This document shows, in pieces, positions 10,610 to 36,320 of a DNA stretch of 64,000 nt. This DNA is from Unio delphinus (taxonomy: Eukaryota; Mollusca; Bivalvia; Unionida; Unionidae), in NCBI GenBank assembly GCA_029339505.1, contig JAQISU010000210.1, positions 13,407,501 to 13,471,500 of the forward strand, given 5' to 3'. A program made the translations under genes and the position numbers. The notes below the pieces were generated by a model, which was not told the origin of the DNA, did no database searches, and was given only the letters and a program-made list of their open reading frames with translations. Position 1 is the stretch's first letter, and the number at the start of each line of letters is the position of its first letter.

Positions 10610-10920
10610 AGCAGCAGAAGGGGCGAATCAGACAACATTTTTAGACAAGTTTTCACTGAAATCACGCTTAAAAACAATGAAACCAATGACATCAGACCCC
10701 CAATGTGTGTGTGAATCTGATATCGTTTCATGGATTAGGTCCAAAAAAAAATATGAAAAAATCAATGAAATTAATGAAATCCTCCATCGATTTTTTGGGA
10801 AAAAGGGACTACAACGTCGTTGTCACTCACCCTCTCCGCTGCTAGAACTTTAAGTTGGGGTTAACCGAATATTTGATCCAGTCCGATACGATATCGTGTT
10901 CGAGGGTCATGTAAATTTAT
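10610..10920. repeat. Left terminal inverted repeat of element A
   Basis: Matches the reverse complement of 25368-25678 with small differences over ~310 bp. The C-terminal codons of the ATPase (10861-10920) lie inside it, so the right repeat carries a copy of that coding end. Confidence 0.9.
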
Positions 10921-11532
10921 TGTTACAAATCCGTGTGGGGCAGACTGAGCATGACTGAAGAAATTTCTAAATTGATTGAAGTCCATATCGGAGCACCATG
11001 TCTGCCAAATATTTCGTAGCGTATGTGTATCAACGCCGTTGAATACAGCAAGCATATTACAGTTATCTCTAATCACTTTTGGAATCTGAGTGTAGCGTTG
11101 AGTGACATAGATCACATCAGTGTTTTTATGCCTGCCTCTGGAAAATATTCTAGCAGGATTTTTTTGATTATCTAACATGACATCGTCGTATACAACTAAA
11201 TTGTTGATACTTCAATCGAGGTCATTCACGGATGGCGCCTCGTCAATATCGGTTATAAATTCAATAACATCCTCGGCGGCAATCTCTGAAGCGTTTTCAT
11301 TAAAATCTTTTAGCACTTCATAGCATCGTTGATCATCTACGCTAGGGGCAATTAAATACAACTTATCCCACTTCATCCATCTCATTATTAAATTGAGCAA
11401 CAATTGCGTTTTACCGGATCCAGATGGTCCGATTATAATTGCGCGGATAGAGTTTGGTAGCGCTGCATGATGCTTCACTGGTTCTCTTGTTTTAGTCGCT
11501 GAAAAATCAATTATATTCATATCTCTATACAT
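10861..11532 (-). pseudogene. Packaging ATPase of element A (one internal stop)
   Basis: FtsK/HerA-superfamily ATPase that pumps DNA into capsids. About 223 codons: start MYRDMNIIDF at 11532; Walker A GPSGSGKTQ near residue 36-43; Walker B strand LVVYDDVM near residue 115; a Gln sensor in IYVTQRYTQIP; and the C-terminus RIGLDQIFG, which lies within the terminal repeat. A single TGA at 11212-11214 falls just before Walker B. Element B has GGA (Gly) at this codon, so one substitution separates A from an open frame. Its start codon is only 5 bp from the divergent start at 11538, an arrangement kept in B. Confidence 0.88.
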
Positions 11533-11537
11533 AAATT

Positions 11538-12067
11538 ATGGATCTATATTGCGTGAAGTGTAAGGCGCGTACTGGCACAGATGACTTGACGACGATTACA
11601 ACTAAAAATAACCGATCAGCGCTTTCTGGTAAATGCGTACAGTGTAGTACAAAGAAATTTAGATTTGTTTCTAAACCCAAGGAACCCAAGGAACCTTTAA
11701 AAAAAAACGAGGAGGTGATATCGCTGCCAAATTAGCAAAACTCCCTGGAACCCCATGGGCAAAATACCCCGGAGAAAAACACCTTCCAGGGTATAGTTAT
11801 TGTGGACCGGGAACAAGACTTGATATCAGACTCAATGATCAAAATCAGCCCCGACCCGGTGAGGAACCAATAAACGCTATTGATAAGGCCTGTCACCTTC
11901 ATGATGTTGCTTATAAAAGCAGCAATTTGCAACACAGGCATCTAGCAGATGTGAAATTAATTCATGCGTTGAATTCTATCACTGATAAATCCTTCAAAGA
12001 AAAATTGGCTTCATTTTTGATAAAATCGGCTATGAAAAGTAAATTGATGTTAGGTGCTGGTAATTAA
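11538..12067 (+). CDS. Zinc-ribbon / parvovirus-type phospholipase A2 protein, expressed by likely -1 frameshift
   Basis: The first frame (11538-11735) starts MDLYCVKC and has a second CxxC (CVQCSTKK), making a four-Cys zinc ribbon. At 11702-11708 lies A AAA AAC within a run of nine A. After it the -1 frame stays open to TAA at 12065-12067 with no ATG of its own. This second part has the PLA2 calcium loop YCGPGT, and the catalytic His-Asp of CHLHDVAY, as in the VP1 unique region of parvoviruses. There it breaches the endosome during entry. About 176 residues in all if joined. Element B keeps the identical slip site and frame relation. It overlaps no other gene and is followed by integrase. 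A role in virion entry is inferred; it could also be a shared indel. Confidence 0.75.
11702..11708 (+). promoter_or_regulatory. Putative -1 ribosomal frameshift site (A AAA AAC)
   Basis: In the zero frame the heptamer reads A-AAA-AAC, the classic X XXY YYZ slip pattern. Slipping -1 enters the PLA2 frame. It is conserved at 35948-35954 in element B. A nine-A run (11699-11707) also allows polymerase slippage. Confidence 0.6.
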
Positions 12068-12074
12068 TAGCAAC

Positions 12075-13019
12075 ATGGAATCTATTTATTATTCCCCAAG
12101 AGGATACTGGAAGGGTAACGCTGCAATCAGTAAACTCGCTAGCGCCGCAAAAGTGAAAAAAACCACTGCGGCTCATTGGTTATCCAAACAGGCACTATGG
12201 CAAATTTATCTACCACCGCCTAAACAAATTCAATTCTCACATTTTGATGTAACCGGACCCAATGAAGTTCATCAGGCTGATCTATTATCTCTGCCACATG
12301 ATCGTGGTTACAAATATGCGTTAACCGTAGTTGATATTGCAAGTCGATACAAAGAAGCAGAACCGTTAAAAACAAAATCAGCCACTGAAGTCGCTTCTGC
12401 ATTTGAAAGGATTTATCGACGAGGTCCTCTGCACTGGCCAAATCTGTTACAAGTTGACCCGGGCAAGGAATTTCAGGGTGCAGTGTTATCTACAATGAAA
12501 TATCACAATGTCGCTATCAGACGAGGGCAAACTGCACTGCATCGTGATCAGGCCATTGTAGAACGATTTAATCGGATTCTTGCTGAACGGTTATTTGGAT
12601 ATCAATACGCAAAAGAATTCATCCAAGAAAAAAGATCCCGTGAATGGGTTAAGAGATTACCAGGTGTAGTTACCGCACTGAATAACGAGATTACTAGAAC
12701 CATCAACATGAAACCTATCAACGCGATTAAAAAGAAGTCGATACCTGAAAAACCACAAAAGGATTTCAAAGAACCAATTCTTGGTAGTAATGTCATTTTG
12801 AGGTATTTATATGAACCAGGAGAGCTTGAGGGTGGTACAAAAAGGGCTACTGATCCTATTTGGAGTGTCAAAACGCATAAGATATCTAGTATAACACGAT
12901 CTACGGGTAGACCTCCAATCTATAAACTAAATTCAACTGCCCCTCAACGGGGTTTTACTAGACAACAATTACAAGTGATACCGGAGGATACTCAATTACC
13001 ACCGCATGGTCTTAACTAG
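12075..13019 (+). CDS. Polinton-type rve (retrovirus-like) integrase of element A
   Basis: A DDE-family integrase that would cut and join the element ends. I choose the ATG at 12075 (MESIYYSPRGYW), which lies 8 bp after the PLA2 stop; the open frame upstream has no ATG. Catalytic acidic residues: D69 (EVHQAD), D128 (LQVDPGKEF) and E163 (QAIVERFN), with 34 residues between the last two. An N-terminal HTH/zinc-type region (AKVKKTTAAHWLSKQ) precedes the core. A C-terminal Lys/Arg-rich chromo- or SH3-like region (HKISSITRSTGRPPIYKL) follows. Length ~314 aa is normal for Polinton integrases. The frame is intact. It overlaps the next small ORF by 14 bp. Confidence 0.92.
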   Translation: MESIYYSPRGYWKGNAAISKLASAAKVKKTTAAHWLSKQALWQIYLPPPKQIQFSHFDVTGPNEVHQADLLSLPHDRGYKYALTVVDIASRYKEAEPLKTKSATEVASAFERIYRRGPLHWPNLLQVDPGKEFQGAVLSTMKYHNVAIRRGQTALHRDQAIVERFNRILAERLFGYQYAKEFIQEKRSREWVKRLPGVVTALNNEITRTINMKPINAIKKKSIPEKPQKDFKEPILGSNVILRYLYEPGELEGGTKRATDPIWSVKTHKISSITRSTGRPPIYKLNSTAPQRGFTRQQLQVIPEDTQLPPHGLN

Positions 13020-13200
13020 CACCCTTGCGTCTATTGCACTCAAGACAAGTCAACATCACATTATTTCTGACATGACCGAGATTGTTATTTTTTCTGTCTA
13101 CGGTGAATTGGCGAGGATCCTTATGCGAATACTGCCAACGCATTATACAATTGCAACTTGCGCAGTGATTATTCTGTTGTTTCTTCAAAGTGATTATTAA
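13006..13200 (+). CDS. Small conserved membrane protein (64 aa)
   Basis: Starts with ATG inside the integrase end and finishes convergently on the polymerase-helicase stop (13197). The C-terminal third is a single hydrophobic span (YTIATCAVIILLFLQSDY), preceded by an amphipathic segment with ARILMRILP. A second start, MTEIVIFSVYGEL, would give ~42 aa. Element B holds the same ORF at 37550-37744 with the same length, start and stop and mostly conservative changes, although its neighbours are broken. I do not recognise the family. Single-pass membrane protein is what the sequence shows; any role in budding or entry is a guess. Confidence 0.6.
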   Translation: MVLTSTLASIALKTSQHHIISDMTEIVIFSVYGELARILMRILPTHYTIATCAVIILLFLQSDY

Positions 13201-16200
13201 TTCAGCATCAATATCAAATTCTCGTTGTTTTTTTTGTCCTGTTGTTTGTAACCGGAGAGTTTTTTATCAATAATATCATTTATTGTGGTGTCATTATCAT
13301 CGCCACAAATGATTTCATCATCGCCAATGATTTCATCATCGAAGACAATTCTTCGAAGTTGATTTATTTTTCGTACTCTGGATACTGAAAGATAGACTAA
13401 ATTTGACCATTCTATGCGATTATCTACCATCCAAAGAGTTGTATCCGATATAGTCAATCCCTGTGAAGAATGTATCGTCGCTGCATAACCTAGCGTCCAC
13501 GGGGATTTATTAGCACGCAATGCATCTTCAACAACATTGATATCAACCAGCACAATATCATTTAATACGAGAATCTGTCTTTGAAATCCTTCGGATTTTG
13601 GTCCTGGAATATCAACTTCGATGTTCTGTTTTCGCGTATCCGATGGCCTATAACAAAGAGGCACTGGAAGTGTTGCAAATTTTTGTTTATGCAATTCAAA
13701 TAACTTCATCTGAAGTGTGTCCCTGACTATTTTTCTACTTGCAATGATTAAATCGTTTGGTCTCCACATTTCCCAGAACTCATTCATGGGAGTTTCCGAA
13801 ATTATTTCACGGGCTATTTCACATTGGATTCTATCCGGTTGTAATCTAATTAGTTTCTTCAATTCTTTTAATTCATTATCAAGTGATCTATGATCGGTAT
13901 CAATTTCTTCATAATAGTCTACAAAACCCTTTAGCCATTCATGGGGAGATGCACCGACAAATGGTGGTGGTTGCCCGTGATCACCGCACATGACGATTTT
14001 TGTATTCTTCAATAACAACCACTCAAGAAATATTTTTAAGACATCTTCGGACACTGTGTCTATTTCATCCCACATGATGAATTTAGGAATAAATTTCTCT
14101 CCCATGCGCTCAGGAGTCCATTTATCTCCCTTCCATCGGAAAAAGCTGTGATAAGTGCAAGCATTTACCCCTCTCTGTATCATTTCTCTTGCAAGTCTAT
14201 GAGTTGGTGTTAGCACAATCATTTTTGTGAAATCCGTAGGATTTTTCCCACGAAATAACTCAATTACCCGGGTTGTTTTTCCTGACCCACCACAACCGTT
14301 TAAATAAACTGTTTTATATCTACAGATTGGATCAGAAATCGGTGGTGCACTAGAAAATTCTGAACACTGATTGCTTTCTAAGTAATTATTTTCAATGGTA
14401 ACATATGCTGTTGGAATATAATCATGAATCATTTCTTTCTTAATTCTCCATGATCCCCATTTCTCGTTGCCAGTAGCCTTAAAATCAGCCATTTTGCTAT
14501 TTATGTAAAATGAGTCAGTAGCAACTCTAACTGCGGTGGTAGGAAATCTATTGATCATTGAAAATAAATTAATAGAAGCATAACCAAGCATAGAAGCTCT
14601 CAAATGTGTGTACTGCGGATGGTATCCATCATTGTAGGTAACAATTGTACCCAATTTGGTTCCATCGGACATAAATGCGTCCTTACGATTGACATATAGG
14701 CCCTTATTCGTTAAATCCGCCATTACAAAATCGTATTCAGCGTTGTCTATAATCAATCGTGAAGAATATTTCGTATTATCATCTTTGCCACCTTGGGTAA
14801 ATTTACCGATTATTCTTCGTCCAAGATTTTTTGCTTCATTGTTTCTGATTTCAAATAACTGTTGGGACCAATCCATGATTTGTTGTTCATTTAAATCAGG
14901 AAACAGTTTTCGCTCTTCGCTAATTATTTTTTCTAGATCAGGTTGTGGTAACCAGACTGATTTCTGTGCTCGATAGGATATAATTGCTTCACTGACAATT
15001 AATGATTTTAACATCTTACAATCAAGCATATACCGTAATAACACTATTGGCATCCAGTGTTTTTCAGACATGTGTTTACCAATCCAAAGATAACTACACG
15101 GATGAAGCCCTTCAGCCATTTCAAATGATACCACACAAGCGAATCCGGTTAAATCAAAATCAGGCAGTGGTCCATTAATCGCAACACGGGTCATTTCGTG
15201 TGTAGGGTGTCCAAATCGTTTGAAATATTTCTCGCATTCTCCATACCCAAGAAAACTCCCTGGATAACACGCAATCATATCAACTGAAATAACGGTATCA
15301 GCGGTGTATTTTGTGTTCCATAATCCGCCGTGGCTGTATTCAAGACAGGACAATTTGACCTCTGATAAGAACTCACTTCGGGTTGGTTTCCACGCGTTTT
15401 TCTTTCTAGCAAAATGTGCTGCAATGGATGGTACTGTGAAACAGTTTGCTAATAATTGATCGTTGTCTTCTCCGTCCTCAGAAAACTCACTAGCTAGTTG
15501 TTTCATTTGATTCTGCAGTTCTTCAGTACGGTATAATTCTCCGTTAGGCCTTACAAACTGATCAAATCTGCATTCCTCGTCTGAATTACTATGAAATAGC
15601 CACGCTGACACAGGATCGTTTTTACTCAAATGGTAAATAGCATCAAATAATTTCTGCTCTGAAAAAAACTCTTCGGTTTGGGATAGATATTTTACGGTTC
15701 TTTCCCGTGGGAATATTGTTACTGCAGATGACCACGCGTGCGCGTTATGATCAATAATTTCAATGGGGGCTCCCTGTGATTTATATTTCGATTCGTATAA
15801 TACTTCTCCGGTGATTGTCCTTACCGATATTGGAAATCTTAATGATTTTTCTAATTTAGTTATATCCTGAATTGTTGCTCCATGCTCTTTTACCGTGAAC
15901 TCCCACTCTGTTATTTTTTTTCGTCTTAGATCAGTGAGTTTATTTCCCCGGGACGCATTTGCGAAGTGTTCTATTATTCGTTCTGCTACACAATTGAGGC
16001 CTGTTGAATATTTCATGAATGCTAGTTTTGAAATATCAGGTTTTTCATTGAGCGGATAGATCCCGTAAACAACTGCTGTGACAGGATAAGATCTTTCGTA
16101 GTAGGGTTTATCAATTCCAGTCGAAATTCCCGGTTTGGAATCCTGGTTCACGGTGACAGTTTTTTTGCCCTTGAGAATGGGTTCAAATTTATCCTTAATA

Positions 16201-16886
16201 ATCCATTTGCCATTCTCACGGATAATGAATTTGATTCGGAAAAAATGACTTTTTTCCCCAACACGGGAAATGATCACTGCTGTCTTTTCATCATTCATGG
16301 TAGCGTCAACAACACCATCAATTCGAAATGTTGACCAACAATGAGCTGCTCCATCACGCTTGAATTCATTAAAACAGTCTCTGATGGGTTTATCAAGAAT
16401 TTTATTCTTGGGTGTATTAGAAACTATATCAAGATTGAATTGAGCATCCTTCCATGGTGATCTCATGTTTCCGTCTCTTGGACGTTTGTTACGTTTTTTG
16501 GGTCTATCGATATTAAATCTAGGATTGATTTTCAATAATCTCTTAAACTCCTTCATGTTTCCGTCTCTTGGACGTTTGTTACGTTTTTTGGGTCTATCGA
16601 TATTAAATTTAGGGTTAATTTTCAATAATCTCTTAAACTCCTTCATGTTTCCGTCTCTTGGACGTTTGTTACGTTTGTTTCCGTCTATTGGACGTTTTTT
16701 GGGTCTATCGCGATTAAATCTAGGATTGATTTTTAATAATCTCTTAAACTCTTTCATGTTTCCGTCTATTGGACGTTTTTTGGGTCTATCGCGATTAAAT
16801 CTAGGATTGATTTTCAATAATCTCTTGAACTCTCTATCGGTATTGATTTTAGCATTTTTCGAAGTCAATCTCTTGAACTCCTTCAT
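13197..16886 (-). CDS. Fused B-family-like DNA polymerase / SF1 helicase (1229 aa)
   Basis: Replication protein of element A. Residues 1-~145: four to five tandem repeats (MKEFKRLLKINPRFN...RPRDGN). Residues ~146-830 hold polymerase-like motifs: motif A-like DMIACYPGSF with D536, motif B-like GRRIIGKFTQGG with K695 and motif C-like ATDSFYI with D791. Residues ~855-1190 form a superfamily-1 helicase: Walker A GCGGSGKTT (K870), Ia LTPTHRLA, II IMWDEID, III CGDHGQPPP, V TIHSSQG and VI YLSVSRV. No terminal-protein or exonuclease domain is obvious. I recall similar fusions among predicted proteins of fungi and invertebrates, unverified here. The frame is fully open. Each N-terminal repeat has a Met, so the true start may be internal. 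Divergent start at 16911 is 24 bp away. Confidence 0.85.
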   Translation of the reverse strand: MKEFKRLTSKNAKINTDREFKRLLKINPRFNRDRPKKRPIDGNMKEFKRLLKINPRFNRDRPKKRPIDGNKRNKRPRDGNMKEFKRLLKINPKFNIDRPKKRNKRPRDGNMKEFKRLLKINPRFNIDRPKKRNKRPRDGNMRSPWKDAQFNLDIVSNTPKNKILDKPIRDCFNEFKRDGAAHCWSTFRIDGVVDATMNDEKTAVIISRVGEKSHFFRIKFIIRENGKWIIKDKFEPILKGKKTVTVNQDSKPGISTGIDKPYYERSYPVTAVVYGIYPLNEKPDISKLAFMKYSTGLNCVAERIIEHFANASRGNKLTDLRRKKITEWEFTVKEHGATIQDITKLEKSLRFPISVRTITGEVLYESKYKSQGAPIEIIDHNAHAWSSAVTIFPRERTVKYLSQTEEFFSEQKLFDAIYHLSKNDPVSAWLFHSNSDEECRFDQFVRPNGELYRTEELQNQMKQLASEFSEDGEDNDQLLANCFTVPSIAAHFARKKNAWKPTRSEFLSEVKLSCLEYSHGGLWNTKYTADTVISVDMIACYPGSFLGYGECEKYFKRFGHPTHEMTRVAINGPLPDFDLTGFACVVSFEMAEGLHPCSYLWIGKHMSEKHWMPIVLLRYMLDCKMLKSLIVSEAIISYRAQKSVWLPQPDLEKIISEERKLFPDLNEQQIMDWSQQLFEIRNNEAKNLGRRIIGKFTQGGKDDNTKYSSRLIIDNAEYDFVMADLTNKGLYVNRKDAFMSDGTKLGTIVTYNDGYHPQYTHLRASMLGYASINLFSMINRFPTTAVRVATDSFYINSKMADFKATGNEKWGSWRIKKEMIHDYIPTAYVTIENNYLESNQCSEFSSAPPISDPICRYKTVYLNGCGGSGKTTRVIELFRGKNPTDFTKMIVLTPTHRLAREMIQRGVNACTYHSFFRWKGDKWTPERMGEKFIPKFIMWDEIDTVSEDVLKIFLEWLLLKNTKIVMCGDHGQPPPFVGASPHEWLKGFVDYYEEIDTDHRSLDNELKELKKLIRLQPDRIQCEIAREIISETPMNEFWEMWRPNDLIIASRKIVRDTLQMKLFELHKQKFATLPVPLCYRPSDTRKQNIEVDIPGPKSEGFQRQILVLNDIVLVDINVVEDALRANKSPWTLGYAATIHSSQGLTISDTTLWMVDNRIEWSNLVYLSVSRVRKINQLRRIVFDDEIIGDDEIICGDDNDTTINDIIDKKLSGYKQQDKKNNENLILMLN
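14230..14244. repeat. Palindromic element AAATCC-GTA-GGATTT inside helicase codons
   Basis: A 15-bp hairpin just C-terminal to Walker A in coding DNA. At the matching place element B has a different palindrome, AAACGCTAGCGTTT (38750-38763). Confidence 0.75.
16466..16886. repeat. In-frame tandem repeats in the polymerase-helicase N-terminus
   Basis: Four main units of ~81-111 bp, each encoding MKEFKRLLKINP(R/K)FN plus a basic tail ending DGN. Units differ by insertion of KRNKRPRDGN. The two distal units are almost identical at DNA level, suggesting recent slippage. Confidence 0.9.
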
Positions 16887-16910
16887 GCTATATATAAAAC
16901 AAGCATTTAA
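16887..16910. promoter_or_regulatory. Bidirectional TATA-containing gap
   Basis: The 24 bp between the divergent starts at 16886 and 16911 contain TATATATAAAAC. It is too short for two normal promoters, so the polymerase may start at an inner Met or transcripts may overlap. Confidence 0.45.
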
Positions 16911-17306
16911 ATGAAAGATTTATGTATAATGAATCACTGCAAATGGCTCATGATGGGAAATGTAACCCCGTGTAACAAATCATGCAGAAAAAATGAATAC
17001 TGTAGGTATCATATGCAAAGTTTTCGACGTGGAAGTCTTGGTCCGTTACCCTGTATTCGATGTGGGGTTGGGGTCAAGGGAAGATCACAATTGTGTATTG
17101 ATTGTGGTGGTAAGCGATACAGGGAATTGAAGCGTTATTATGATAAAAGAATAAAAAATGGACAATCCATCAGAAATTATGACCCTGAAAAAGTCTTTGT
17201 CCCTGACAACATCAAGGATAAAATCATAAGAACTCCGCAAGACTACATCGAAAGATTTTCCAGTGATGTAATTATTGAACCAAACACTGAATTAGACAAA
17301 CAATAG
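16911..17306 (+). CDS. Cys-rich putative zinc-binding protein (131 aa)
   Basis: Ten or more Cys/His residues in two clusters: an N-terminal CNKSCRKNEYCRYH and a CxxC/CxxC ribbon (PCIRCGVGVKGRSQLCIDCG), followed by a basic helix RYRELKRYYDKR. The layout suggests a nucleic-acid-binding zinc protein. It heads the rightward gene group in A and is missing from B, whose deletion spans it. I do not recognise the family. Frame intact; start supported by the upstream TATA-like sequence and ATG. Confidence 0.6.
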   Translation: MKDLCIMNHCKWLMMGNVTPCNKSCRKNEYCRYHMQSFRRGSLGPLPCIRCGVGVKGRSQLCIDCGGKRYRELKRYYDKRIKNGQSIRNYDPEKVFVPDNIKDKIIRTPQDYIERFSSDVIIEPNTELDKQ

Positions 17307-17316
17307 AATAGTATAT

Positions 17317-17808
17317 ATGAACCAAGAATTCAGACAGCATCCAGTGATTACAAATTATGAGGCATCTAGTGATGGTACTGTCAGAAACCGTAGACTAAAG
17401 AAACCGGTCGGTGTTGTGAATAATCATGGATATTTGGTGTTTGGCGCTAGGGAGGGAAAAGAAACGAAAACTTATCTCAATCATCGTTTCGCATTTGAGT
17501 GTTTTTATGGATTGATCGAGGATGATTCTGTCATTGATCACAAGGATTCTAATCCAAAGAATAATTCTTTATCAAATCTGCAAGCAATCACACAGAGTGA
17601 GAATTCCAAACGAGGAAGGACTGGAAAGTGCTCAAAAAAAGCGAGACCAGTAAAATCTTTGAACGAAGAAAAAATATTTTAATCATTATATGAAGCCGGT
17701 AAATTTTTCGATATTTGTTCATCTTCTGTACGAAAACTTGCAGAGGGGATAACCAAAACGGCTATTTCAAAAAAGACGGGGCAAAAAGTTCAATTTAGTT
17801 ATGTCTAA
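17317..17808 (+). pseudogene. HNH endonuclease with NUMOD domains (one internal stop)
   Basis: Resembles free-standing homing-type HNH nucleases. Residues 1-45 match the NUMOD4 pattern (HPVITNYEASSDGTVRN). Then comes an HNH core with HRFAFECFYGL, the VIDHKDSNPKNNSLSNLQ motif holding the metal-binding D/H and N residues, and a QSENSKRG tail. After a TAA at 17680-17682 the same frame continues to 17808 with a NUMOD1-like DNA-binding helix (SLYEAGKFFDICSSSVRKL). The stop therefore removes only the DNA-recognition tail. It could still make a core nuclease. No inteins or introns flank it. Absent from B. Such genes usually spread themselves; a role in the element is not shown. Confidence 0.8.
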
Positions 17809-17849
17809 TGCGTCATAATTTCCAATTAGAGATATGTCATTCTTATAGA

Positions 17850-18209
17850 ATAATGAATTCTGAAAACATGAATAGCATCATAGTTGAAATAGCAAAATTG
17901 AAAAATCAGGATATCAAACTATCAGATGGGTTAAATCCTGATCAAATTGTGTCTGATTTTCAGGATATAGAATACGGGGTTAACACTAACAAATATATGC
18001 TACCCAAGAAGTATGCACTCATCAAAAAAATTCAGAATTCTATTAAGGACTCTCTTTCATTTTCCAGTGACATCAGTGTGTTCGTCCCGTTGTATACTAT
18101 CGTAGAGGGGATACGAAAAGAATTAGGTAACGAATACGAATTGAAAAAAGAAGTCAACTCTAAAATTAGAAACCTACGAGCATTAATTCAAGAAAATGAA
18201 CAATTTTGA
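17850..18209 (+). CDS. Unknown helical protein (~119-133 aa)
   Basis: Frame open from 17808 to 18209. The ATG at 17850 (MNSENMNSIIVEIAKL) looks the better start, because the upstream part follows directly on the HNH stop. Predicted mostly alpha-helical and charged, with no Cys pattern or membrane span. The last ~50 codons are retained in element B (38820-38979) at the edge of its internal deletion. Family not recognised. Confidence 0.5.
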   Translation: MMNSENMNSIIVEIAKLKNQDIKLSDGLNPDQIVSDFQDIEYGVNTNKYMLPKKYALIKKIQNSIKDSLSFSSDISVFVPLYTIVEGIRKELGNEYELKKEVNSKIRNLRALIQENEQF

Positions 18210-18355: not shown

Positions 18356-18440
18356 TCAATGATAGAAGGTGTCTCACGATGAAATAACACTTCCATGACC
18401 GTGTTAAAAATCATCAGACATGTCATTGATGTCAAAAAAG

Positions 18441-18493: not shown

Positions 18494-18602
18494 TCACTGA
18501 TAGAAGGTGTCTCACGATGAAATAACACTTCCATGACCGTGTTAAAAATCATCAGACATGTCAAGTGTTTTACAATTGAAAAATGGTTTGCGATTTCAAA
18601 TA

Positions 18603-19685
18603 ATGGTCAATGAAGCATTAACAACCCGACTGGCTCGTGAGCGACTAGATGCAATTAAGAAATTTATACCAATTCGTGACTCTGTAAGAAATAAACTGCA
18701 ACAACGACAGAGTCTTCAGACTGATTTTGCTCTGGGGTCTGAAGAGCTGTTTAAACCAGTAACCACAGCAACGAAAGGGGTAGAGCGTGCTATACTGGGA
18801 GATGATCCTGACGGTAAGAGAAAGGAAGAGGGTCTTATTTCTGTACTTGAAAAACTAGCAGCGAAAACTGAACAAACTGAACAAACTGATCCGAAAAAAA
18901 CGACTGTTTCTCTGTTGAATAAATTTACTGATCATGCTAAAATATTAATAAAAAAACCTAGTTTATTGAAATCAAAGGATTATCAAGCCTTTGGTAATTT
19001 TGCTGCTCAAAGTTATAATTCAAAAAAAGATTTTTTAAAGGACGAGTATAAAAATGATAGAATATCAAGTAATGATTGGTTCGATTATTTGTATAAACTA
19101 AATAAAGGGATTGGTCGTTTGAATAAGGATGAGATTGGATACAAGGAATTTAAAAAGGGAATTAGTAATTATAAAAGAGAACAAATAGAAGAGCGACAAC
19201 GAGAAATAGAAGAACGGCAAGAACTAAAACGTCAAACACCAACACGTAGACAAACAAGAAGACAAAAAAAACAACAACTACCACCTGATGATGATGATGA
19301 TTTAGAAGAACGACGTCAAACACCAACACGGAGACAAAAAAAACAAGAAGAACCTAAAAAACAACAACTACCACCTGATGATGATGATGATGATACTCTT
19401 GATTATTTACAAACCACGGATACAGACAAACTAGATGAAGCAGCTGGCTATAGCGGAAGTGGATTAGGAAATCCAAGGATTGGAAACATTTGTCCTGATA
19501 GTGTTATCAATGATATATCACGATTAGATGTTCTCATCGGAGGAAAAAGAGCTGGAAATAACTCTCCAGAAATAATTAATGAAGCAGCTGATATCTGTAG
19601 ACGGTTATTTGCCGGCGGTATCATGGATATCAAAACCTATCGAGATTTCATTGACGAGTTAGCAAATGGGTATCATAGCGATTAA
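18603..19685 (+). CDS. Scaffold/core-like structural protein with acidic repeats
   Basis: First gene of the late operon. The frame opens at 18558, but I prefer ATG 18603 (MVNEALTTRLARERL), because the leader before it (ATTTCAAATAATG) recurs before the next gene in B (40430). N-terminal basic helical region; middle coiled and charged; then two copies of a basic-acidic unit (RQTPTRRQ..KKQQLPPDDDDD), an internal duplication at ~19225-19395. The conserved-looking C-terminus has ISRLDVLIGGKRAGNNSP. Function not known. Position before capsid genes and the alternating charge suggest a scaffold or genome-associated protein. B has a frameshifted version (39403-40393). Confidence 0.6.
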   Translation: MVNEALTTRLARERLDAIKKFIPIRDSVRNKLQQRQSLQTDFALGSEELFKPVTTATKGVERAILGDDPDGKRKEEGLISVLEKLAAKTEQTEQTDPKKTTVSLLNKFTDHAKILIKKPSLLKSKDYQAFGNFAAQSYNSKKDFLKDEYKNDRISSNDWFDYLYKLNKGIGRLNKDEIGYKEFKKGISNYKREQIEERQREIEERQELKRQTPTRRQTRRQKKQQLPPDDDDDLEERRQTPTRRQKKQEEPKKQQLPPDDDDDDTLDYLQTTDTDKLDEAAGYSGSGLGNPRIGNICPDSVINDISRLDVLIGGKRAGNNSPEIINEAADICRRLFAGGIMDIKTYRDFIDELANGYHSD

Positions 19686-19718
19686 ATAACAATTGAAAAC
19701 ACTATTGTTTTTATAATA

Positions 19719-20150
19719 ATGATCGTACACTACAATCATGATAAACCAACCCTCGTCTATGTAGTTAATTCACGGTTTCCAGTTTATAGAGCATACTACG
19801 GAGATGGCCTCGGCAGGACCATTTTAGGATTCTTTTCAAGAATGGCCCCAAAAGTGATGCCGTTAGCTAAACAGTTATCAATGAAAGCCATTGATGTTAT
19901 TCGTGATAAGGGTATTAGTACTGTTGGAGATCTTGCCGGGAAAGCGTTTTCAACTGCGAAGGATAAAATAACATCATTAGTGAGTCGAAAAAAGAAACCG
20001 TTACCGTCTACAGAAGAAATGCCTGCAAGTGTTAGTAAAATTATAAATAACGCAGTAGATGAAAAATTAGCGTCGATGGTAAATCAAGGGGACCAAAGCA
20101 ATATTGCAAACATGATAGCGGGAAGTGGTCTTAAAAAACTACGTCGATGA
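19719..20150 (+). CDS. Minor virion protein candidate (143 aa)
   Basis: Begins MIVHYNHDKPTLVYVVNSRF, then a Gly-rich amphipathic segment GDGLGRTILGFFSRMAPKVM followed by a long helix and a basic stretch SRKKKPLP. The GDGxGxxxxxxF pattern before a helix is seen in adenovirus-like minor virion proteins cleaved by adenain. Here GDGLG could be such a site, but I cannot test it. Frame intact, and also intact in B (40436-40903), which adds a palindrome at its 3' end. Late operon member. Confidence 0.55.
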   Translation: MIVHYNHDKPTLVYVVNSRFPVYRAYYGDGLGRTILGFFSRMAPKVMPLAKQLSMKAIDVIRDKGISTVGDLAGKAFSTAKDKITSLVSRKKKPLPSTEEMPASVSKIINNAVDEKLASMVNQGDQSNIANMIAGSGLKKLRR

Positions 20151-20157
20151 AAATGGA

Positions 20158-20173
20158 AAAATCGTTTACGATT
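20158..20173. repeat. Intergenic palindrome AAATCG-TTTA-CGATTT
   Basis: Sixteen-bp hairpin just before the capsid gene. B has the same hairpin at 40918-40933 plus two further palindromes beside it. Confidence 0.7.
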
Positions 20174-20204
20174 TCACTATTTAGACTCTGATAAATAGAA
20201 TAAA

Positions 20205-21629
20205 ATGTTCAAAAAGTCACATGATCCAGCGTTTGATATAGACGCCCCAGTTGGCAAGGATGATTCTGTACGCGATTATCAATATTACGCCTATCATGCC
20301 ATAGACTCAAATAGTCGAGCAAGAATTGATCTTCAAGTCCATGATACCAGTAAATACTTTTTGCCCTGTGAAGCATTTATTGAAGTAGAAGGAGAAATTG
20401 TAACAGCTGCTGATACTACTGCTGTACCAGCACCGTATCCAGCTGGTACTCAAGTCGGTTTTGTCAATAATGGTATTATGGCGCTATTTGAGAGTGCTAG
20501 ATATCTCATTGATGGAAAAGAAATTGAGTCCATAGATCGTGATGTTGATGTGGCTACAACAATCATAGGGTTAGCGAGATATTCTGATGATTATACAAGA
20601 TCAGCAGGACCCTCTATGATGTTTGCAAAAGATGGTAAGAATACCGCTGGAGGAAATCCATTTGTTGTAAGACGACCAAAGAATAATGCTGGTGCTGCTA
20701 ATGCTGATGTCGAGGATATGATTATAAACAACGATCCTAATTTCAATCTAGGAGCTGCAACACGAAACTCAATGTTGCAAGAAGCGCGTAGATCATTTTC
20801 ATGTGCGATTCCACTGCATCACATATTTGGATTCTGTAGAAACGTCAGAAAAGTTATTTATGGAGCGAAGCATACAGTATCGCTTGTACGAAAGAGTGAT
20901 GATAACGACGCAATTTGGAGGATTCCAGCAGACAATGCAAATCCCAATGCTGATGCCGGTAAAGTCAATTTAACAAAAATATCATTGTGGATGCCAGTGT
21001 TGACTCCAGCAATCACCGCAGAAGGACGATTACTATCATTTATGGACCAAGGAGGAAAGTCGTTGTTGAGTTGGCTAACCGTGAGTACAGATGTGAAACA
21101 ATCAAATATCAACGGGTTATTCACTTGGAACCTAGCATCAAAACAAGGCGTTTCTGCGCCACGTCATATATTTATTGCGTTACAGGATAACACACGAGTT
21201 GGCAATCAACAACGAAGTCATATGATATTTGATCAATTAGGTGTGAAAGACGTCTCACTGAGAATAAACGGCCAGCAGGAACCATCTGAGGATATACAAC
21301 TTAATTACACAGAAAATCATATTGAACGAGTTTATCATCGTCTGTTGTCATTTATGGCACGCGATCAAAATGTCGATACTGGTTTGCAAATATCACAATA
21401 TGATTTTAAAACTCTGTATCCAATCTATTACTTCTCACTGGAACATCTCGATTTGACAAGACAGTCAGTTGTTGATGTACACTTTAGAGCTAATGTGACT
21501 CGTCCTGTTGGTGCTGCTGCTATTGCTGATTATAGAGCGGTTGCTGTCATTCTCAGTGATAAATCAATGCTACTTGAAGGTGTTGGTGGAAGAATGAGAG
21601 TGGTAGATGCCCCAGTAGAAAACCTTTGA
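20205..21629 (+). CDS. Major capsid protein candidate (474 aa)
   Basis: The longest structural ORF, in the late operon between minor virion proteins and the protease. N-terminal part has DYQYYAYHAIDSNSRARIDL, beta-rich, then FVNNGIMALFESARYLIDGK, a segment typical of the first jelly roll in Polinton-like capsid proteins. The second half has further strand-rich blocks with LRINGQQEPSEDIQL and ends VILSDKSMLLEGVGG. Length is near that of Polinton/adintovirus capsids (about 450-650). Double-jelly-roll fold is inferred from family resemblance and context; structure prediction would settle it. Frame intact. The start is set by AATAAAATG. B carries a copy with two nonsense changes. Confidence 0.75.
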   Translation: MFKKSHDPAFDIDAPVGKDDSVRDYQYYAYHAIDSNSRARIDLQVHDTSKYFLPCEAFIEVEGEIVTAADTTAVPAPYPAGTQVGFVNNGIMALFESARYLIDGKEIESIDRDVDVATTIIGLARYSDDYTRSAGPSMMFAKDGKNTAGGNPFVVRRPKNNAGAANADVEDMIINNDPNFNLGAATRNSMLQEARRSFSCAIPLHHIFGFCRNVRKVIYGAKHTVSLVRKSDDNDAIWRIPADNANPNADAGKVNLTKISLWMPVLTPAITAEGRLLSFMDQGGKSLLSWLTVSTDVKQSNINGLFTWNLASKQGVSAPRHIFIALQDNTRVGNQQRSHMIFDQLGVKDVSLRINGQQEPSEDIQLNYTENHIERVYHRLLSFMARDQNVDTGLQISQYDFKTLYPIYYFSLEHLDLTRQSVVDVHFRANVTRPVGAAAIADYRAVAVILSDKSMLLEGVGGRMRVVDAPVENL

Positions 21630-21678
21630 ACGATTTTTCTCGATTTTTCATTGAATTAGAATCAATCTATTATGTATA

Positions 21679-22202
21679 ATGTCATATAGTGTTATTAGTG
21701 TTGCGTTAACTCCTGGTCAAATCAAAAAATTGCAATCAGAATCGGCTAAAAAATGTGGAACCACAATCACGTTGAAACCCAACCAAATGACGGGTGTTGA
21801 AAATAAATTATCGCTGACAACTCGTCAGGTGAAACATTTCAATGATGCTTTCAAGGATAAAAAGGGGGTTCAGATTACTGTCTCTGCGGCTGCTATCAAA
21901 AATATGATGAAAACAGGCGGTATATTTCCATTGTTAGCTGCAATACCAGCATTCATTGCAGCAGCAGCCCCAGCGGTGGCTAAAGCAGCAGCGTTAGGAG
22001 CCGTTGGTACTGCAGCAGGAATGGCACTAAAAAAGGCAACTGGACAAGGATATAAAAAAAGGGAAAGAGTCTAAGACTACCAGGAACCCCGTATTCTTGG
22101 TACAGCGGAAAAGGTCTAAAGCTACCAGGAACCCCGTATTCATGGTACAGCGGGAGATCCGTGAACGGATCAGGCCTGAGACTACCAGGAACGATTTATT
22201 AA
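21679..22202 (+). CDS. Membrane-active minor capsid-like protein with LPGTPYSWYSG repeats (frameshifted in A)
   Basis: Starts MSYSVISVALTPGQIKKLQ, a basic helix with a Cys, then an LTTRQVKHFNDA helix, then GGIFPLLAAIPAFIAAAAPA, a Gly-Gly-hydrophobic segment like the membrane-active minor proteins of Polintons. In A the frame stops at 22074 (RERV). One frame back, the sequence goes on to 22202 with two LPGTPYSWYSG repeats. In B the same repeats are in frame within a 162-aa protein (42455-42943). So A has a one-base shift at a seven-A run near 22053. LPGTP also begins the PLA2-domain region of the 11538 gene. Overlaps the protease gene start. Confidence 0.6.
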
Positions 22203-22225
22203 TTCAGAAATCTTCGATGGTCCCC

Positions 22226-22663
22226 ATGTCCAATTTTGATTTAATGGATGCTGCTAAAAAACTAGTGATTAAAAATGTCAGAGGTGTTTTTATGAAAGAT
22301 CAATTACCACATCAACCAAACAAAACTGAAACAGGTATTATTAATCTCGATAACAGCACCGGACCTGGAACTCACTGGGTTGCATACGCTATTGATCCAC
22401 GTGGGATTGTCTATTTTGATTCATATGGATTAGCCCCACCAAAAGAGTTTATGCGTTACATAAAACAATTTCCAATGAAGACTTGGTATTCTACGCTACC
22501 AACACAACAAATGAATGACCCACCAATATGCGGCAGTGAAGTATTAAATGTCCTTGACGCTATTTCTAACTCCTTGGGTAACCCAAGGGGAAAACCACCT
22601 CATATTGTTGTAAATGACTACACCAGCAATCGCTTTTTAGAGAGAGAAAGAGTTTTACAATAA
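22226..22663 (+). CDS. Adenain-like virion maturation protease of element A
   Basis: Cysteine protease of the adenovirus type, expected to cleave minor virion proteins. Catalytic His in GPGTHWVAYAI, acidic residue in VYFDSYGL, Gln in LPTQQMNDPP and Cys in PICGSEVLN. The order H-D-Q-C and spacing fit adenain-like proteases of Polintons. The frame is open from 22097, but the first ATG in the conserved part is 22226 (MSNFDLMDAAKKL); ATG 22217 is an alternative. The stop overlaps the fibre gene by one base. Frame intact. Confidence 0.88.
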   Translation: MSNFDLMDAAKKLVIKNVRGVFMKDQLPHQPNKTETGIINLDNSTGPGTHWVAYAIDPRGIVYFDSYGLAPPKEFMRYIKQFPMKTWYSTLPTQQMNDPPICGSEVLNVLDAISNSLGNPRGKPPHIVVNDYTSNRFLERERVLQ

Positions 22664-22664
22664 C

Positions 22665-23498
22665 ATGATTGATATTTGGGGGAGATCTTTGAAACCCAAA
22701 CCCGATGACACTGCAACCGGTGATATAACAAAAAAAATTAAAGATGAAATCGCTGAGACGTTGAACTTAACAAGTGTTGACCCGAATGAAATAGTTGTAT
22801 TTCAAGACAAACAGGGTAAATTGAAATCCAGTAATATTTCTCTGGATGATATTTTGGTTAAACAACAAAAGGCAATCGAGGATACTATCGCGTTATTTTC
22901 CGATCAGGGTAAACTCAAACCGGGTGTACTTTTTTCGACGATTACAGATCGATTTAAAACTCTCAACGATTCTGCGTTAGATCTAGCAACACTTCAATCT
23001 AAAAGCGAAGAACACATAAAACAGTTTAACGCATTTCGTAGAAATATCATTGATAAATTTATTGGAACTACATTCGATAAAATTGAACTAAAACTCCCTG
23101 ATATTAAAAAATCCATCGATGAGACGAAAACTTCCATCGAAGACATCAAAGGTGATCTTTCGAGGATGATAACAGCCATTGAAAAAACAAAAATTCCTCA
23201 TGAGAAAACCAACAACGTAGTATACACGATCCAACACGGATCATTTGAGTGGACACCTACAAACAACAAATTAGATATCACTGCAACCGTTAAGGGTATT
23301 TATCGATTAACACTAGTAACACCATTGTCTCAATTTAATATTTCATCGTCCAGTTCATCCGGGGTCAATAATACGATTTCAACGATCATCGACAAGAATA
23401 CAACTGAAAAGTTTACAATCATATCTACTGATAAAAATTTGGTTAGGGTCTCAACAACGTGGTATGTGGAATTCGTAGCGAATATAAGTAAATCGTAA
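22665..23498 (+). CDS. Fibre-like protein (277 aa)
   Basis: N-terminus MIDIWGRSLKPKP, then a long heptad-rich helical region (~residues 60-185) with repeated IKKSIDETKTSIEDIK-type segments, then a Ser/Thr-rich beta-type C-terminal domain (from WTPTNNKLDITATV; ends STTWYVEFVANISK). Coiled stalk plus beta head is the layout of trimeric attachment fibres. The conserved end in B (43447-44248) supports a real gene there too. Receptor binding is inferred only. Frame intact; the ATG lies immediately after the protease stop. Confidence 0.55.
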   Translation: MIDIWGRSLKPKPDDTATGDITKKIKDEIAETLNLTSVDPNEIVVFQDKQGKLKSSNISLDDILVKQQKAIEDTIALFSDQGKLKPGVLFSTITDRFKTLNDSALDLATLQSKSEEHIKQFNAFRRNIIDKFIGTTFDKIELKLPDIKKSIDETKTSIEDIKGDLSRMITAIEKTKIPHEKTNNVVYTIQHGSFEWTPTNNKLDITATVKGIYRLTLVTPLSQFNISSSSSSGVNNTISTIIDKNTTEKFTIISTDKNLVRVSTTWYVEFVANISKS

Positions 23499-23502
23499 TT
23501 GA

Positions 23503-23516
23503 AAACGCTAGCGTAT
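23503..23516. repeat. Palindrome with CGCTAGCG core before the membrane-protein gene
   Basis: AAACGCTAGCGTATT region, 12-37 bp upstream of ATG 23528. B has the related AAAACGCTAGTGTTTT at the same place. Confidence 0.6.
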
Positions 23517-23527
23517 TTAAAATAAAA

Positions 23528-24175
23528 ATGATTTCATCATCTCAATATCGCTATGATCAGGTCAGAGAATATCAAACTAGACTCAAAACCCTGTCTGAGG
23601 AGTATGCAATGAAAATTAAAAAATATCGCAAGAGAATTACCGCAATTGATGTTACTGTGTATTCAGTGAGTGGTGTAATCACCGGAGCCGGTATTATACT
23701 GTCTTCAGTGACAATGATGGCTCCGATAGCTGTTCCAATTTGCATTTCTGCGGCAACAACAATCGCTGAAATTATTTCAATAATCACAAAAAAAATATCC
23801 TCATGCAGCCAACGGAAACTACAAGACTACATACTTCAATTTCATGTTGTGTCCACTGCATACTCGCAATTATCCTCATTGATATCGTCATCGCTCGATG
23901 ATACAATTATATCAGAGAGTGAGTTTTCAGCGATGGTAGATATATATGATTCTGCGATGTCAAAATTAGAAGTACAAAAACATGAGTATAATAACAATGA
24001 CAACACAGATGGAATTACTTCAACAAATAGTGGAGAACACAAACCCAGTACAAACAAGCATGATCTCAATAACCTCAACGAATCCAGAATTCAGTGTGAA
24101 TTTCCCCTCTCCGGTCCCAGTGAAGGAGATAGCGCTAGCAAAACTACGAGTATACCACAGTTGGCCAAATATTAG
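23528..24175 (+). CDS. Membrane protein of the late operon (215 aa)
   Basis: Basic N-terminal helix with YRYDQVREYQTRLKTL, then two adjoining hydrophobic stretches (residues ~45-90) with GVITGAGIILSSVTMM and APIAVPICISAATTIA, then helical residues to ~155, and a low-complexity Asn/Thr/Ser C-terminus. The last ~65 codons overlap the next gene (ATG 23982) in another frame, and their low complexity suggests they are shaped by that overlap. Similar two-hydrophobic-block proteins occur in invertebrate virus-like loci, as far as I recall. Function unknown. B has one nonsense change at 44567. Confidence 0.55.
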   Translation: MISSSQYRYDQVREYQTRLKTLSEEYAMKIKKYRKRITAIDVTVYSVSGVITGAGIILSSVTMMAPIAVPICISAATTIAEIISIITKKISSCSQRKLQDYILQFHVVSTAYSQLSSLISSSLDDTIISESEFSAMVDIYDSAMSKLEVQKHEYNNNDNTDGITSTNSGEHKPSTNKHDLNNLNESRIQCEFPLSGPSEGDSASKTTSIPQLAKY

Positions 24176-25353
24176 GTCAAAATCATTTGGTGGTCAACAA
24201 CCGAATAATTCCCTTGCATTTGCAAATAAGAATAAACCCGACGGTACCCCAGACTGGAATGTTGTTTCCATACCAACCGGATCATATCAAATTGAACAAA
24301 TCAATGATGAATTCGCACGTTGAATAAAATCGATTACTGGAAAAGAATCAAAAATAGCTATAACAGTTCATGTGCCGACACTATCATCTGCCATTGAAAT
24401 AAGTACAGAAGGATACGTCGTAGATATCTATCAGAGTTCTATTAGAACCGTACTGGGATGGCCTGAAATCCCACCCCGGGAAAAACCCGTTGATTTACCA
24501 GAACCACAAAAAACTGATTATGTCACCGACGTGATAGCACCTGATAATCCAATAAAGAGTTATGAAGATCACGAGATTACTATAGATTTTTTTGGTATCA
24601 AGAAGCCAGGGGAGGGAATAGGGGGACATAATTTTGTTGACGAACCTGAAATCATTAAAAATTTCACAGCAATGAATAATGATTTTTCGCTGTTGTTAAT
24701 ATCTCTTAAATCCGGCTCTCTCACCCGAGATGAATTTATCAGCGGCGTAGAAACATGCAACAAAATTATCGACGATATGGAAACATTTCATTTGCGAATC
24801 ATTCAAGTGGTATTAGGTGACAGTAATCCTATAACGAGAACAGAATTTGCAAAACAATATAAAATTTCCGTGAAGGATATCCCCACATTCAAACTACCAG
24901 GATATAACGTACCAGAACTAAAAAAACTTCTCAGTGATGCCATCGATGTTGGTTTTAAAATAATTCATGATGCATGGAAAAAAACATCATCACCGGAAAT
25001 AAAAATCCTCAAACACAATAATGACCCAGACGGTGGTGGCAGGCATATTGCTCCGTTCAATGTGAATATTTCAACGGTGATTGCGCTCAATTTAGTGTGT
25101 GATGTGATCGAAGGAAGCTATCAAATAAATTTAGAACGATCAAATCAAGCTCAGCAGGGATATATTTTTGTATTCATTTGCACCAACAGCTCCTCCAGGG
25201 TTTTTTATAATTGAGTCCCCGGTGAATCCAGTCTATATGCGATGTCATAATAATTCATTAACCAGAATTAATTTCAAACTCACTGACCAATCTAATAATC
25301 TGATTGATTTACAAGAGGAGGTTTTACAAATTAGTCTGTTTGTGAAATCCTGA
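23982..25353 (+). pseudogene. Penton- or minor-capsid-like protein, last gene of element A (two lesions)
   Basis: Starts MSIITMTTQMELLQQIV. A strand-rich domain (KEIALAKLRVYHSWPNI; VSIPTGSYQIEQIN) is followed by a central helical insert and a strand-rich C-terminus (LVCDVIEGSYQINLERS; then a segment ending LQISLFVKS at 25353). A TGA at 24321-24323 interrupts it where B has a sense codon. One extra T near 25165 (ATATATTTTTG against ATATATTTTG in B) shifts the frame. Late position and beta-rich two-domain layout suggest a vertex or minor capsid protein; this is inferred. The frame ends ~15 bp before the right terminal repeat. Confidence 0.6.
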
Positions 25354-25361
25354 AAGGATTT
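25345..25361. repeat. Palindrome AAATCC-TGAAA-GGATTT at the end of the last gene
   Basis: Member of the AAATCC/GGATTT hairpin family. It may serve as a terminator. B has AAATCCTAAAAGGATTT at 46187-46203. Confidence 0.6.
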
Positions 25362-25367
25362 TCGTCG

Positions 25368-25678
25368 TAGTGATTTACATGTCCCCCAGACAAAGTCTGG
25401 AACACGATATCGTATCGAACTGGATCAAATATTCGGTTAACCCATAGCAGCAGAAGGGGTGAGTGACAACGACGTTGTAGTCCCTTTTTCCCAAAAAATC
25501 GATGGAGGATTTCATTAATTTCATTGATTTTTTCATATTTTTTTTGGGACCTAAACCATGAAACGATATCAGATTCACACACACATTGGGGGTCTGATGT
25601 CATTGGTTTCATTGTTTTTAAGCGTGATTTCAGTGAAAACTTGTCTAAAAATGTTGTCTGATTCGCCCCTTCTGCTGA
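25368..25678. repeat. Right terminal inverted repeat of element A
   Basis: Reverse complement of 10610-10920, ending CCTTCTGCTG. The outermost CT expected from the left end seems altered to A. Confidence 0.88.
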
Positions 25679-35781: not shown

Positions 35782-35786
35782 AAATT

Positions 35787-36313: not shown

Positions 36314-36320
36314 TAACAAC

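What the first reader, a model, noticed from the sequence alone, without database searches (positions are those of the whole stretch)
10610..25678. Polinton-like element with parvovirus-type PLA2 and a polymerase-helicase fusion instead of canonical PolB
Element A (and B) joins capsid-forming Polinton genes (integrase, ATPase, capsid, adenain-like protease) with a zinc-ribbon/PLA2 protein and a 1229-aa B-family-like polymerase fused to an SF1 helicase. The neighbouring decayed Maverick has the usual protein-primed PolB, so the two replication systems are directly contrasted in one window. This gene set looks like a distinct lineage of integrating animal DNA viruses. Families are established knowledge; novelty of the combination is my inference.
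Basis: partly seen in the sequence, partly recalled or inferred. Interest (0 to 1): 0.9.

Follow-up and report, generated by a model that had tools for sequence, protein, structure and literature searches.

The report
Animal virus-transposon with helicase-fused polymerase
This is a decaying integrated DNA virus, probably in an invertebrate genome, that joins ordinary virus-shell genes to a DNA-copying enzyme fused to a helicase; each part is of a published type, but I did not find the whole set described in an animal lineage.

Summary
Element A (10610-25679) has 98% terminal inverted repeats, a 5-bp flank duplication, DDE integrase, packaging ATPase, double-jelly-roll capsid protein, adenain-like protease, zinc ribbon plus parvovirus-type PLA2, and a 1229-aa polymerase-helicase. 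Element B (34791-46502) is a second, decayed insertion with the same gene order. A decayed Maverick beside A carries ordinary PolB.

The polymerase is not a new kind: it fits the published "Tlr1-like helicase" (pPolB-S1H), with a likely vOTU Cys/His, phi29-like palm, motif C lacking its first Asp, Pif1/RecD2-type helicase and a C-terminal HNH (in another frame in A). Integrase + capsid + pPolB-S1H is the Tlr1 set; PLA2 in Polintons is published. I did not find this set described in a probable invertebrate lineage; its capsid groups with freshwater-mussel sequences, its replicase has relatives in a sea slug and mycorrhizal fungi.

A is not intact: ATPase and a candidate penton gene carry in-frame stops. 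A/B dN/dS (0.10-0.54) indicates past selection. In both copies PLA2 is in the -1 frame to the zinc ribbon at a nine-A run; programmed frameshifting is possible, unproven. Verdict: new variant of a known kind.

The parts
10605..10609 (.). Left 5-bp flank duplication TTGTT (candidate target-site duplication of A)
10610..10844 (+). Left terminal inverted repeat of element A, begins AGCAGCAG
   Evidence: 98% complementary to 25445-25677 over 233 nt; end set at 10610
10861..11178 (-). C-terminal piece of the packaging ATPase
   Evidence: Zot 0.0014, Pox_A32 0.0063, both under cut-off; same frame as the N-terminal piece, an in-frame stop lies between them
11212..11532 (-). N-terminal piece of the packaging ATPase with P-loop GPSGSGKT
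   Evidence: Pox_A32 3.6e-4, under cut-off; A/B dN/dS 0.15
11538..11735 (+). Zinc ribbon (DUF5679)
   Evidence: PF18930 1.3e-13
11675..12064 (+). Parvovirus-type PLA2 frame (YCGPG...HDVAY), -1 relative to the zinc ribbon, no ATG before its catalytic part
   Evidence: PF08398 2e-12; profile of 25 relatives finds parvovirus VP1 at 0.0054; A/B dN/dS 0.10; frames
12075..13019 (+). RVE/DDE integrase, 314 aa
   Evidence: PF00665 1.7e-7, just under cut-off; 86.8% identical to B over its first 295 aa
13197..16886 (-). pPolB-S1H replicase, 1229 aa: N-terminal region, likely vOTU (C299, H383), phi29-like palm (about 393-829), SF1 helicase (about 850-1190)
   Evidence: 72 homologues
13010..13180 (-). C-terminal HNH-like domain of the replicase, in another frame in this copy (approximate extent)
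   Evidence: frame translations against the C-termini of P0001 and others
16911..17306 (+). 131-aa protein with cysteine pairs, unknown
   Evidence: no Pfam match above cut-off
17317..17682 (+). HNH endonuclease, 121 aa (homing-type)
   Evidence: PF13392 1.2e-12
17808..18209 (+). 133-aa protein, unknown
   Evidence: residues 82-133 conserved in B
18558..19685 (+). 375-aa protein, unknown, least constrained (dN/dS 0.54)
19719..20150 (+). 143-aa protein, next to the capsid gene, unknown
   Evidence: conserved in B, dN/dS 0.29
20205..21629 (+). [quoted passage not shown]
21679..22074 (+). 131-aa protein with Ala/Gly-rich C-terminus, unknown
   Evidence: conserved in B, dN/dS 0.17
22142..22663 (+). 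Adenain/Ulp1-type cysteine protease, 173 aa
   Evidence: ASFV S273R protease 4.6e-6; PF00770 0.0026, under cut-off
22665..23498 (+). 277-aa protein, unknown (candidate fibre/spike by eye only)
   Evidence: no Pfam match; conserved in B
23528..24175 (+). 215-aa protein, unknown; overlaps the next gene in another frame
   Evidence: conserved in B, dN/dS 0.26
23982..24671 (+). Candidate minor capsid (penton) gene, interrupted by an in-frame stop
   Evidence: frame translation; both halves conserved in B; no family match; identity by eye only
24672..25214 (+). 180-aa protein, unknown
   Evidence: conserved in B
25445..25679 (-). Right terminal inverted repeat of element A
25680..25684 (.). Right 5-bp flank duplication TTGTT
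34786..34790 (.). Left 5-bp duplication AGACG of element B
34791..46502 (+). Element B: second, decayed and internally deleted insertion of the same family
   Evidence: main aligned stretches 77-90% identical, same gene order, TIRs
46503..46507 (.). Right 5-bp duplication AGACG of element B

Best explanation
Element A is a decaying provirus of a Polinton-like virus (phylum Preplasmiviricota) that uses the Tlr1-type replicase instead of an exonuclease-bearing Polinton PolB. Proposed mechanism. (1) The DDE integrase joins AG-ended terminal repeats to a 5-bp staggered target (shown: integrase family, terminal repeats and 5-bp duplications at two insertions; inferred: reaction). (2) The large - strand protein copies the linear genome: an N-terminal domain gives a protein primer, a vOTU cysteine protease cuts it off, the phi29-like palm polymerises and the fused Pif1/RecD2-type helicase unwinds, in place of an exonuclease (shown: palm and helicase folds and motifs, conserved Cys/His; inferred: activities and priming, from PMC11071308). 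(3) ATPase, jelly-roll capsid proteins and adenain-type protease build and mature a virion (shown: families, the ATPase only weakly; inferred: virions). (4) PLA2, attached to or made beside a zinc ribbon, opens the endosomal membrane at entry as in parvoviruses (inferred from the family, and proposed for Polintons in PMC4642659). Probable host: an invertebrate, perhaps a mollusc (inferred from named relatives).
Against: vOTU and terminal-protein domains were not folded or searched alone. No Tlr1, PLV or transpoviron replicase sequence could be aligned (the IMG/VR scan gave one 25% helicase match; none in phages; the BFVD search for this model never ran). The replicase model's pTM is only 0.69. 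The ATPase, integrase and protease are under their Pfam cut-offs, and the penton is unrecognised by Pfam. Host identity is inferred. A is not intact. Some of the 17 dN/dS values are disturbed by overlapping frames (PLA2 with zinc ribbon for about 60 bases; 23528-24175 with the candidate penton).
Confidence: 0.85

Rival explanations
1. The element is a Tlr1-type PLV proper that moved into an animal host, not a separate animal lineage: every gene would fall inside a described PLV clade once enough references are used.
For: Same replicase architecture and same RVE integrase + capsid set as Tlr1. Replicase relatives are also in Glomeromycotina (10-row clade, support 100).
Against: Tlr elements lack the adenovirus-like protease (PMC4028283 passage), which is present here. 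The capsid groups with mussel sequences and finds Hydra proteins at 26-36%. In the 50 BFVD rows shown, Adintovirus sp. and MELD virus sp. proteins match by fold at 13% and 11% identity. No Tlr1 sequence was available.
Confidence: 0.25
2. A chimera in the host genome: an unrelated pPolB-S1H element inserted into an ordinary Polinton, so the gene set is not that of one virus.
For: The replicase is on the opposite strand to the integrase and capsid, and a homing-type HNH endonuclease gene lies near it at 17317.
Against: Element B, a separate insertion with its own flank duplication, has the helicase half at the same place and in the same order. No nested TIRs around the replicase appear among the 25 longest of 229 inverted repeats. 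No second polymerase was recognised in A.
Confidence: 0.06
3. The replicase palm is dead (first Asp of motif C lost) and the element depends on a helper such as the neighbouring Maverick's PolB.
For: Motif C lacks the first Asp in nearly all homologues; an earlier paper called this palm inactivated (title only, in reference lists). A Maverick with canonical PolB lies in the same window.
Against: Motif A Asp, motif B Lys/Gly and the second motif C Asp are conserved in 26-27 of 27 rows, as selection for catalysis predicts. Other PolBs without that Asp are active, according to PMC11071308.
Confidence: 0.12
4. The zinc ribbon and PLA2 are joined by programmed -1 ribosomal frameshifting at the in-register A AAA AAC site.
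For: A and B share the same run of nine A followed by C, in the same register, and the same -1 relation. PLA2 is the most constrained of 17 pieces (dN/dS 0.10). 7 of 78 relatives start with what I read by eye as the -1 reading of the ribbon's second CxxC.
Against: 17 of 78 relatives carry both domains in one protein. Downstream RNA folding is not significant (z -0.76, -1.54, -0.57). B's PLA2 piece also has one stop, so it is decaying. An indel in an A-run is a common decay event, and my count cannot see +1 cases.
Confidence: 0.3

Closest known systems
Tlr1 element of Tetrahymena and its pPolB-S1H ('Tlr1-like helicase')
   Same: RVE integrase, packaging ATPase, DJR capsid and a palm-SF1 helicase fusion with missing first motif C Asp; C-terminal nuclease (PMC11071308 section 10; PMC4028283 passages).
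   Different: Here an adenain-type protease and zinc ribbon-PLA2 are present, the C-terminal nuclease is HNH rather than GIY-YIG, and named relatives are in molluscs, Hydra (capsid) and fungi (replicase).
Animal Polintons / Mavericks / adintoviruses
   Same: RVE integrase, TIRs, ATPase, DJR capsid, adenain; PLA2 reported in some Polintons (PMC4642659 passage).
   Different: Replicase has a helicase and no recognisable exonuclease motif; capsid matches Adintovirus sp. and MELD virus sp. entries by fold only, 13% and 11% identity; 5-bp rather than 6-bp duplications (6 bp is recalled).
OmPLV of Oxyrrhis marina
   Same: Polymerase-SF1 helicase fusion in an integrated Polinton-like virus (PMC12721341 passages).
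   Different: Opposite order (helicase first), full exonuclease, tyrosine recombinase and GIY-YIG, no RVE integrase detected there.
Transpovirons and PLVs with Tlr1-like helicase
   Same: Same fusion type by published description.
   Different: Transpovirons are described as plasmid-like, non-viral elements; PLVs other than Tlr1 are described with, occasionally, tyrosine integrases rather than RVE (PMC11071308 passages).

Membership tests
Tlr1-like pPolB-S1H replicase | Palm domain of the protein-primed PolB type | tested here: met
Tlr1-like pPolB-S1H replicase | C-terminal SF1 helicase on the same polypeptide | tested here: met
Tlr1-like pPolB-S1H replicase | Motif C lacks the first Asp | tested here: met
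   ATDS in the window; Ala in 25 of 27 rows; pattern [YHF][GA]DTDS in 0 of 72
Tlr1-like pPolB-S1H replicase | Exonuclease domain absent | tested here: inconclusive
   No conserved acidic DxE pair in residues 384-531; but the phi29 alignment begins at phi29 residue 52, so a remnant fold cannot be excluded
Tlr1-like pPolB-S1H replicase | vOTU with catalytic Cys and His before the palm | tested here: inconclusive
   Cys in 26 and His in 25 of 27 rows; fold not tested alone
Tlr1-like pPolB-S1H replicase | C-terminal HNH or GIY-YIG nuclease | tested here: met
   HNH-like pattern in 49 of 72 homologues; present in another frame in A
Tlr1-like pPolB-S1H replicase | Groups with Tlr1/PLV/transpoviron proteins in a tree | not testable with these tools
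   No such sequence obtained
Polintoviruses in the wide sense | TIRs, DDE integrase, DJR capsid, adenain-type protease | tested here: met
   integrase and protease Pfam scores lie under their cut-offs
Polintoviruses in the wide sense | FtsK/A32-type packaging ATPase | tested here: inconclusive
   P-loop and Pox_A32 3.6e-4 in the N-terminal piece, under cut-off
Polintoviruses in the wide sense | Single-jelly-roll minor capsid (penton) | tested here: inconclusive
   Candidate at 23982-24671 by eye; no Pfam match for its pieces; not modelled
Canonical Polinton / adintovirus | Protein-primed PolB with exonuclease and no helicase | tested here: not met
   Helicase is fused; no exonuclease motif found
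Canonical Polinton / adintovirus | 6-bp target-site duplication (recalled) | tested here: not met
   5-bp, not 6-bp, matches at both A and B; random 5-mer match rate in this window 0.00135
Canonical Polinton / adintovirus | Capsid recognisable by sequence as adintovirus hexon | tested here: inconclusive
   Adintovirus/MELD rows of BFVD at 11-13% identity in the 50 rows shown; direct BLAST against reference hexons not done
Parvovirus-type PLA2 | YxGPG calcium loop and HDxxY catalytic dyad | tested here: met
   sequence, PF08398 2e-12, profile to VP1 0.0054; the single sequence alone reached only 0.68

The most novel reading that the evidence does not exclude
A family-level, undescribed lineage of animal (probably mollusc) integrating dsDNA viruses that replaced exonuclease PolB by a Tlr1-type polymerase-helicase, integrates with 5-bp duplications, shares its replicase lineage with arbuscular mycorrhizal fungi, and makes its virion PLA2 through a programmed -1 frameshift from a zinc-ribbon gene.
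Probability: 0.2. Interest if true: 0.7.

Novelty: new variant of a known kind. Interest (0 to 1): 0.52.

Why it matters
It would extend the Tlr1-type replicase into a capsid-bearing lineage of a probable animal host, with replicase relatives in fungi, and put both replicases of the Polinton world in the same host genome, so that replacement of an exonuclease by a helicase can be studied between close neighbours. It also shows a parvovirus-type entry enzyme linked to a zinc ribbon in a double-stranded DNA virus family.

Tried and rejected
Rejected: (a) PLA2 as a chance motif: profile E 2e-12, low dN/dS. (b) Replicase as a host Pif1 or a nested element: same place in B. (c) Replicase as a wholly new polymerase family: matches the published architecture. 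(d) RNA stimulator for the -1 site: folds not significantly better than shuffles.

Led nowhere: IMG/VR scans with replicase, capsid and integrase (one weak helicase match in all); GTDB scan with the replicase (one 3.2-kb MAG contig, 40%); phage tblastn with the replicase; PHROGs with 10 proteins (weak matches, best a transposase at 4.6e-4 for the integrase); NCBIfam with 8 proteins (IS481 1e-12 and RecD2 1.2e-6, far under their cut-offs); Rfam (0 matches); inverted repeats of the decayed Maverick (one short pair); PDB sequence search with the integrase (0). In one search I first used wrong limits for element B and saw no duplication; one search found its ends by their sequence and gave AGACG on both sides. 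Co-occurrence of replicase and capsid on one contig elsewhere could not be tested: hits are proteins without context. An earlier count said 13 fused zinc ribbon-PLA2 relatives and '62+' motif C; the counts are 17 of 78 and 65 of 72.

Papers: PMC11071308 passages and section 10; PMC11071296 passages and sections 13 and 16; PMC12721341, PMC7805220, PMC3671162, PMC4642659, PMC10120064, PMC4028283, PMC10328495, PMC4046053 passages only. PMC5499653 and PMC8502044 are not held, so the founding papers on the S1H fusion and on adintoviruses were not read; the first is known here by title. 'Not found described' rests on searches. Searches found no paper; in some only the top of a longer list was shown (30 of 218, 25 of 28, 20 of 41, 12 of 15, 10 of 11).
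Full report
What is there. Element A runs from 10610 to 25679. Its arms 10612-10844 and 25445-25677 are 98% complementary; the ends read AGCAGCAG on the left and, on the other strand, ATCAGCAG on the right, and TTGTT lies directly outside both. Element B (34791-46502) has AGCAGCAG at both ends and AGACG directly outside both. Random 5-mer pairs of this window match at a rate of 0.00135, so two 5-bp matches at the predicted places are unlikely to be chance; neither extends to 6 bp. Canonical Polintons duplicate 6 bp (recalled, not from a call).

Genes of A. From left to right: packaging ATPase on the - strand in two pieces of the same frame with an in-frame stop between them; zinc ribbon PF18930 1.3e-13 and PLA2 PF08398 2e-12; RVE integrase; the 1229-aa replicase on the - strand; an HNH endonuclease PF13392 1.2e-12; unknown proteins; the capsid protein PF21738 5.1e-16; an adenain-type protease; more unknown proteins; and a candidate penton gene with an in-frame stop. 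The candidate penton is named by eye and position only: Pfam recognised neither piece. The ATPase, integrase and protease are under their Pfam cut-offs; the integrase misses by 0.8 bit and shows D128-x34-E163 by eye.

What this corresponds to. Krupovic and colleagues describe 'Tlr1-like helicases' as variable N-terminus, primer-type domain, vOTU with conserved Cys and His, protein-primed palm lacking the first motif C Asp, SF1 helicase and a C-terminal GIY-YIG or HNH nuclease, and propose the name pPolB-S1H (PMC11071308, section 10; passages). The window protein fits, except that the vOTU and primer domains were not modelled alone and no sequence of that family could be aligned. Tlr elements combine it with RVE integrase, ATPase and both capsid proteins, and lack the adenovirus-like protease (PMC4028283 passages). 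PLA2 of the parvovirus kind is reported in some Polintons and proposed to be packaged for entry (PMC4642659 passage). OmPLV has a fusion in the opposite order with an exonuclease (PMC12721341 passages). So each part is known; the combination in a probable invertebrate lineage was not found in ten full-text searches of an open-licence library that lacks the founding 2016 and 2021 papers and of which, for five searches, only the top of the list was seen.

The second copy. B aligns to A over ATPase, zinc ribbon, PLA2, integrase, the helicase half, capsid, protease and the 3' genes, at 77-90% nucleotide identity in the main stretches, with a deletion that removes the replicase N-terminal part and the HNH gene. 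All 17 pieces compared have dN/dS below 0.6 (0.10 for PLA2, 0.14-0.15 ATPase, 0.19 integrase, 0.23 capsid, 0.24 helicase, 0.54 for 18558-19685). B has 0-2 stops per piece, one of them in PLA2. Overlapping frames disturb some comparisons (PLA2/zinc ribbon and 23528-24175/candidate penton). I infer that the gene set evolved together under selection before both copies decayed; it is not a chance neighbourhood.

Zinc ribbon and PLA2. In A and B the PLA2 frame is -1 to the zinc ribbon, overlaps it, and shows no ATG before its catalytic part; both copies have nine A followed by C in the overlap, which reads A AAA AAC in the register required for -1 frameshifting. Seven of 78 relatives begin with residues that I read by eye as the -1 reading of the ribbon's second CxxC, whereas 17 of 78 carry both domains in one protein. 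RNA folding downstream is unremarkable. Buck et al. suggest -1 sites in adintovirus pentons (PMC11071296 section 16), so the idea is not foreign to these viruses, but an A-run indel is the simpler reading of any one copy. I leave it open.

The neighbour. At about 1-10.5 kb lies a decayed Maverick: a PolB piece with motif A (PF03175 6.4e-7 at 3486-3731), an ATPase-like piece at 6351-6785 (by eye; its only Pfam match, Zeta_toxin 0.0058, is under cut-off), an adenain piece at 10005-10205 that is 43% identical to A's protease, and a BIR domain (PF00653 9.5e-12 at 5330-5548).

Limits. The genome tool did not complete, so the host, the copy number and other flank duplications are unknown. Homologues came without context. 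The statement that the host is an invertebrate is inferred from named relatives. Interest 0.52: a specialist would want this lineage documented, but the replicase and gene set have close published precedents.

Noticed in passing
window 5330-5548 (+): A BIR (inhibitor-of-apoptosis) domain, PF00653 9.5e-12, sits inside the decayed Maverick between its PolB and ATPase-like pieces.
   Followed up: no
window 11675-11735 and 35930-35978: Zinc ribbon and PLA2 frames overlap in a -1 relation in both copies at an identical nine-A run; possible programmed frameshift or a shared indel.
   Followed up: partly
window 16463-16834: Four roughly 90-bp tandem repeats encode a repeated K/R-rich motif at the N-terminus of A's replicase; absent from P0001 in the alignment.
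   Followed up: no
window 36903-37500: The 3' end of B's integrase gene is duplicated in tandem.
   Followed up: no
window 26762-27061 and 29212-29511: Two 97% identical 300-bp stretches in long ORFs between A and B, possibly a tandem-duplicated gag-like gene (gag-like by eye).
   Followed up: no
window 50145-50839: Reverse-transcriptase-like pieces of a LINE-type element (by eye; one RVT_1 match among 81 ORFs scanned).
   Followed up: no
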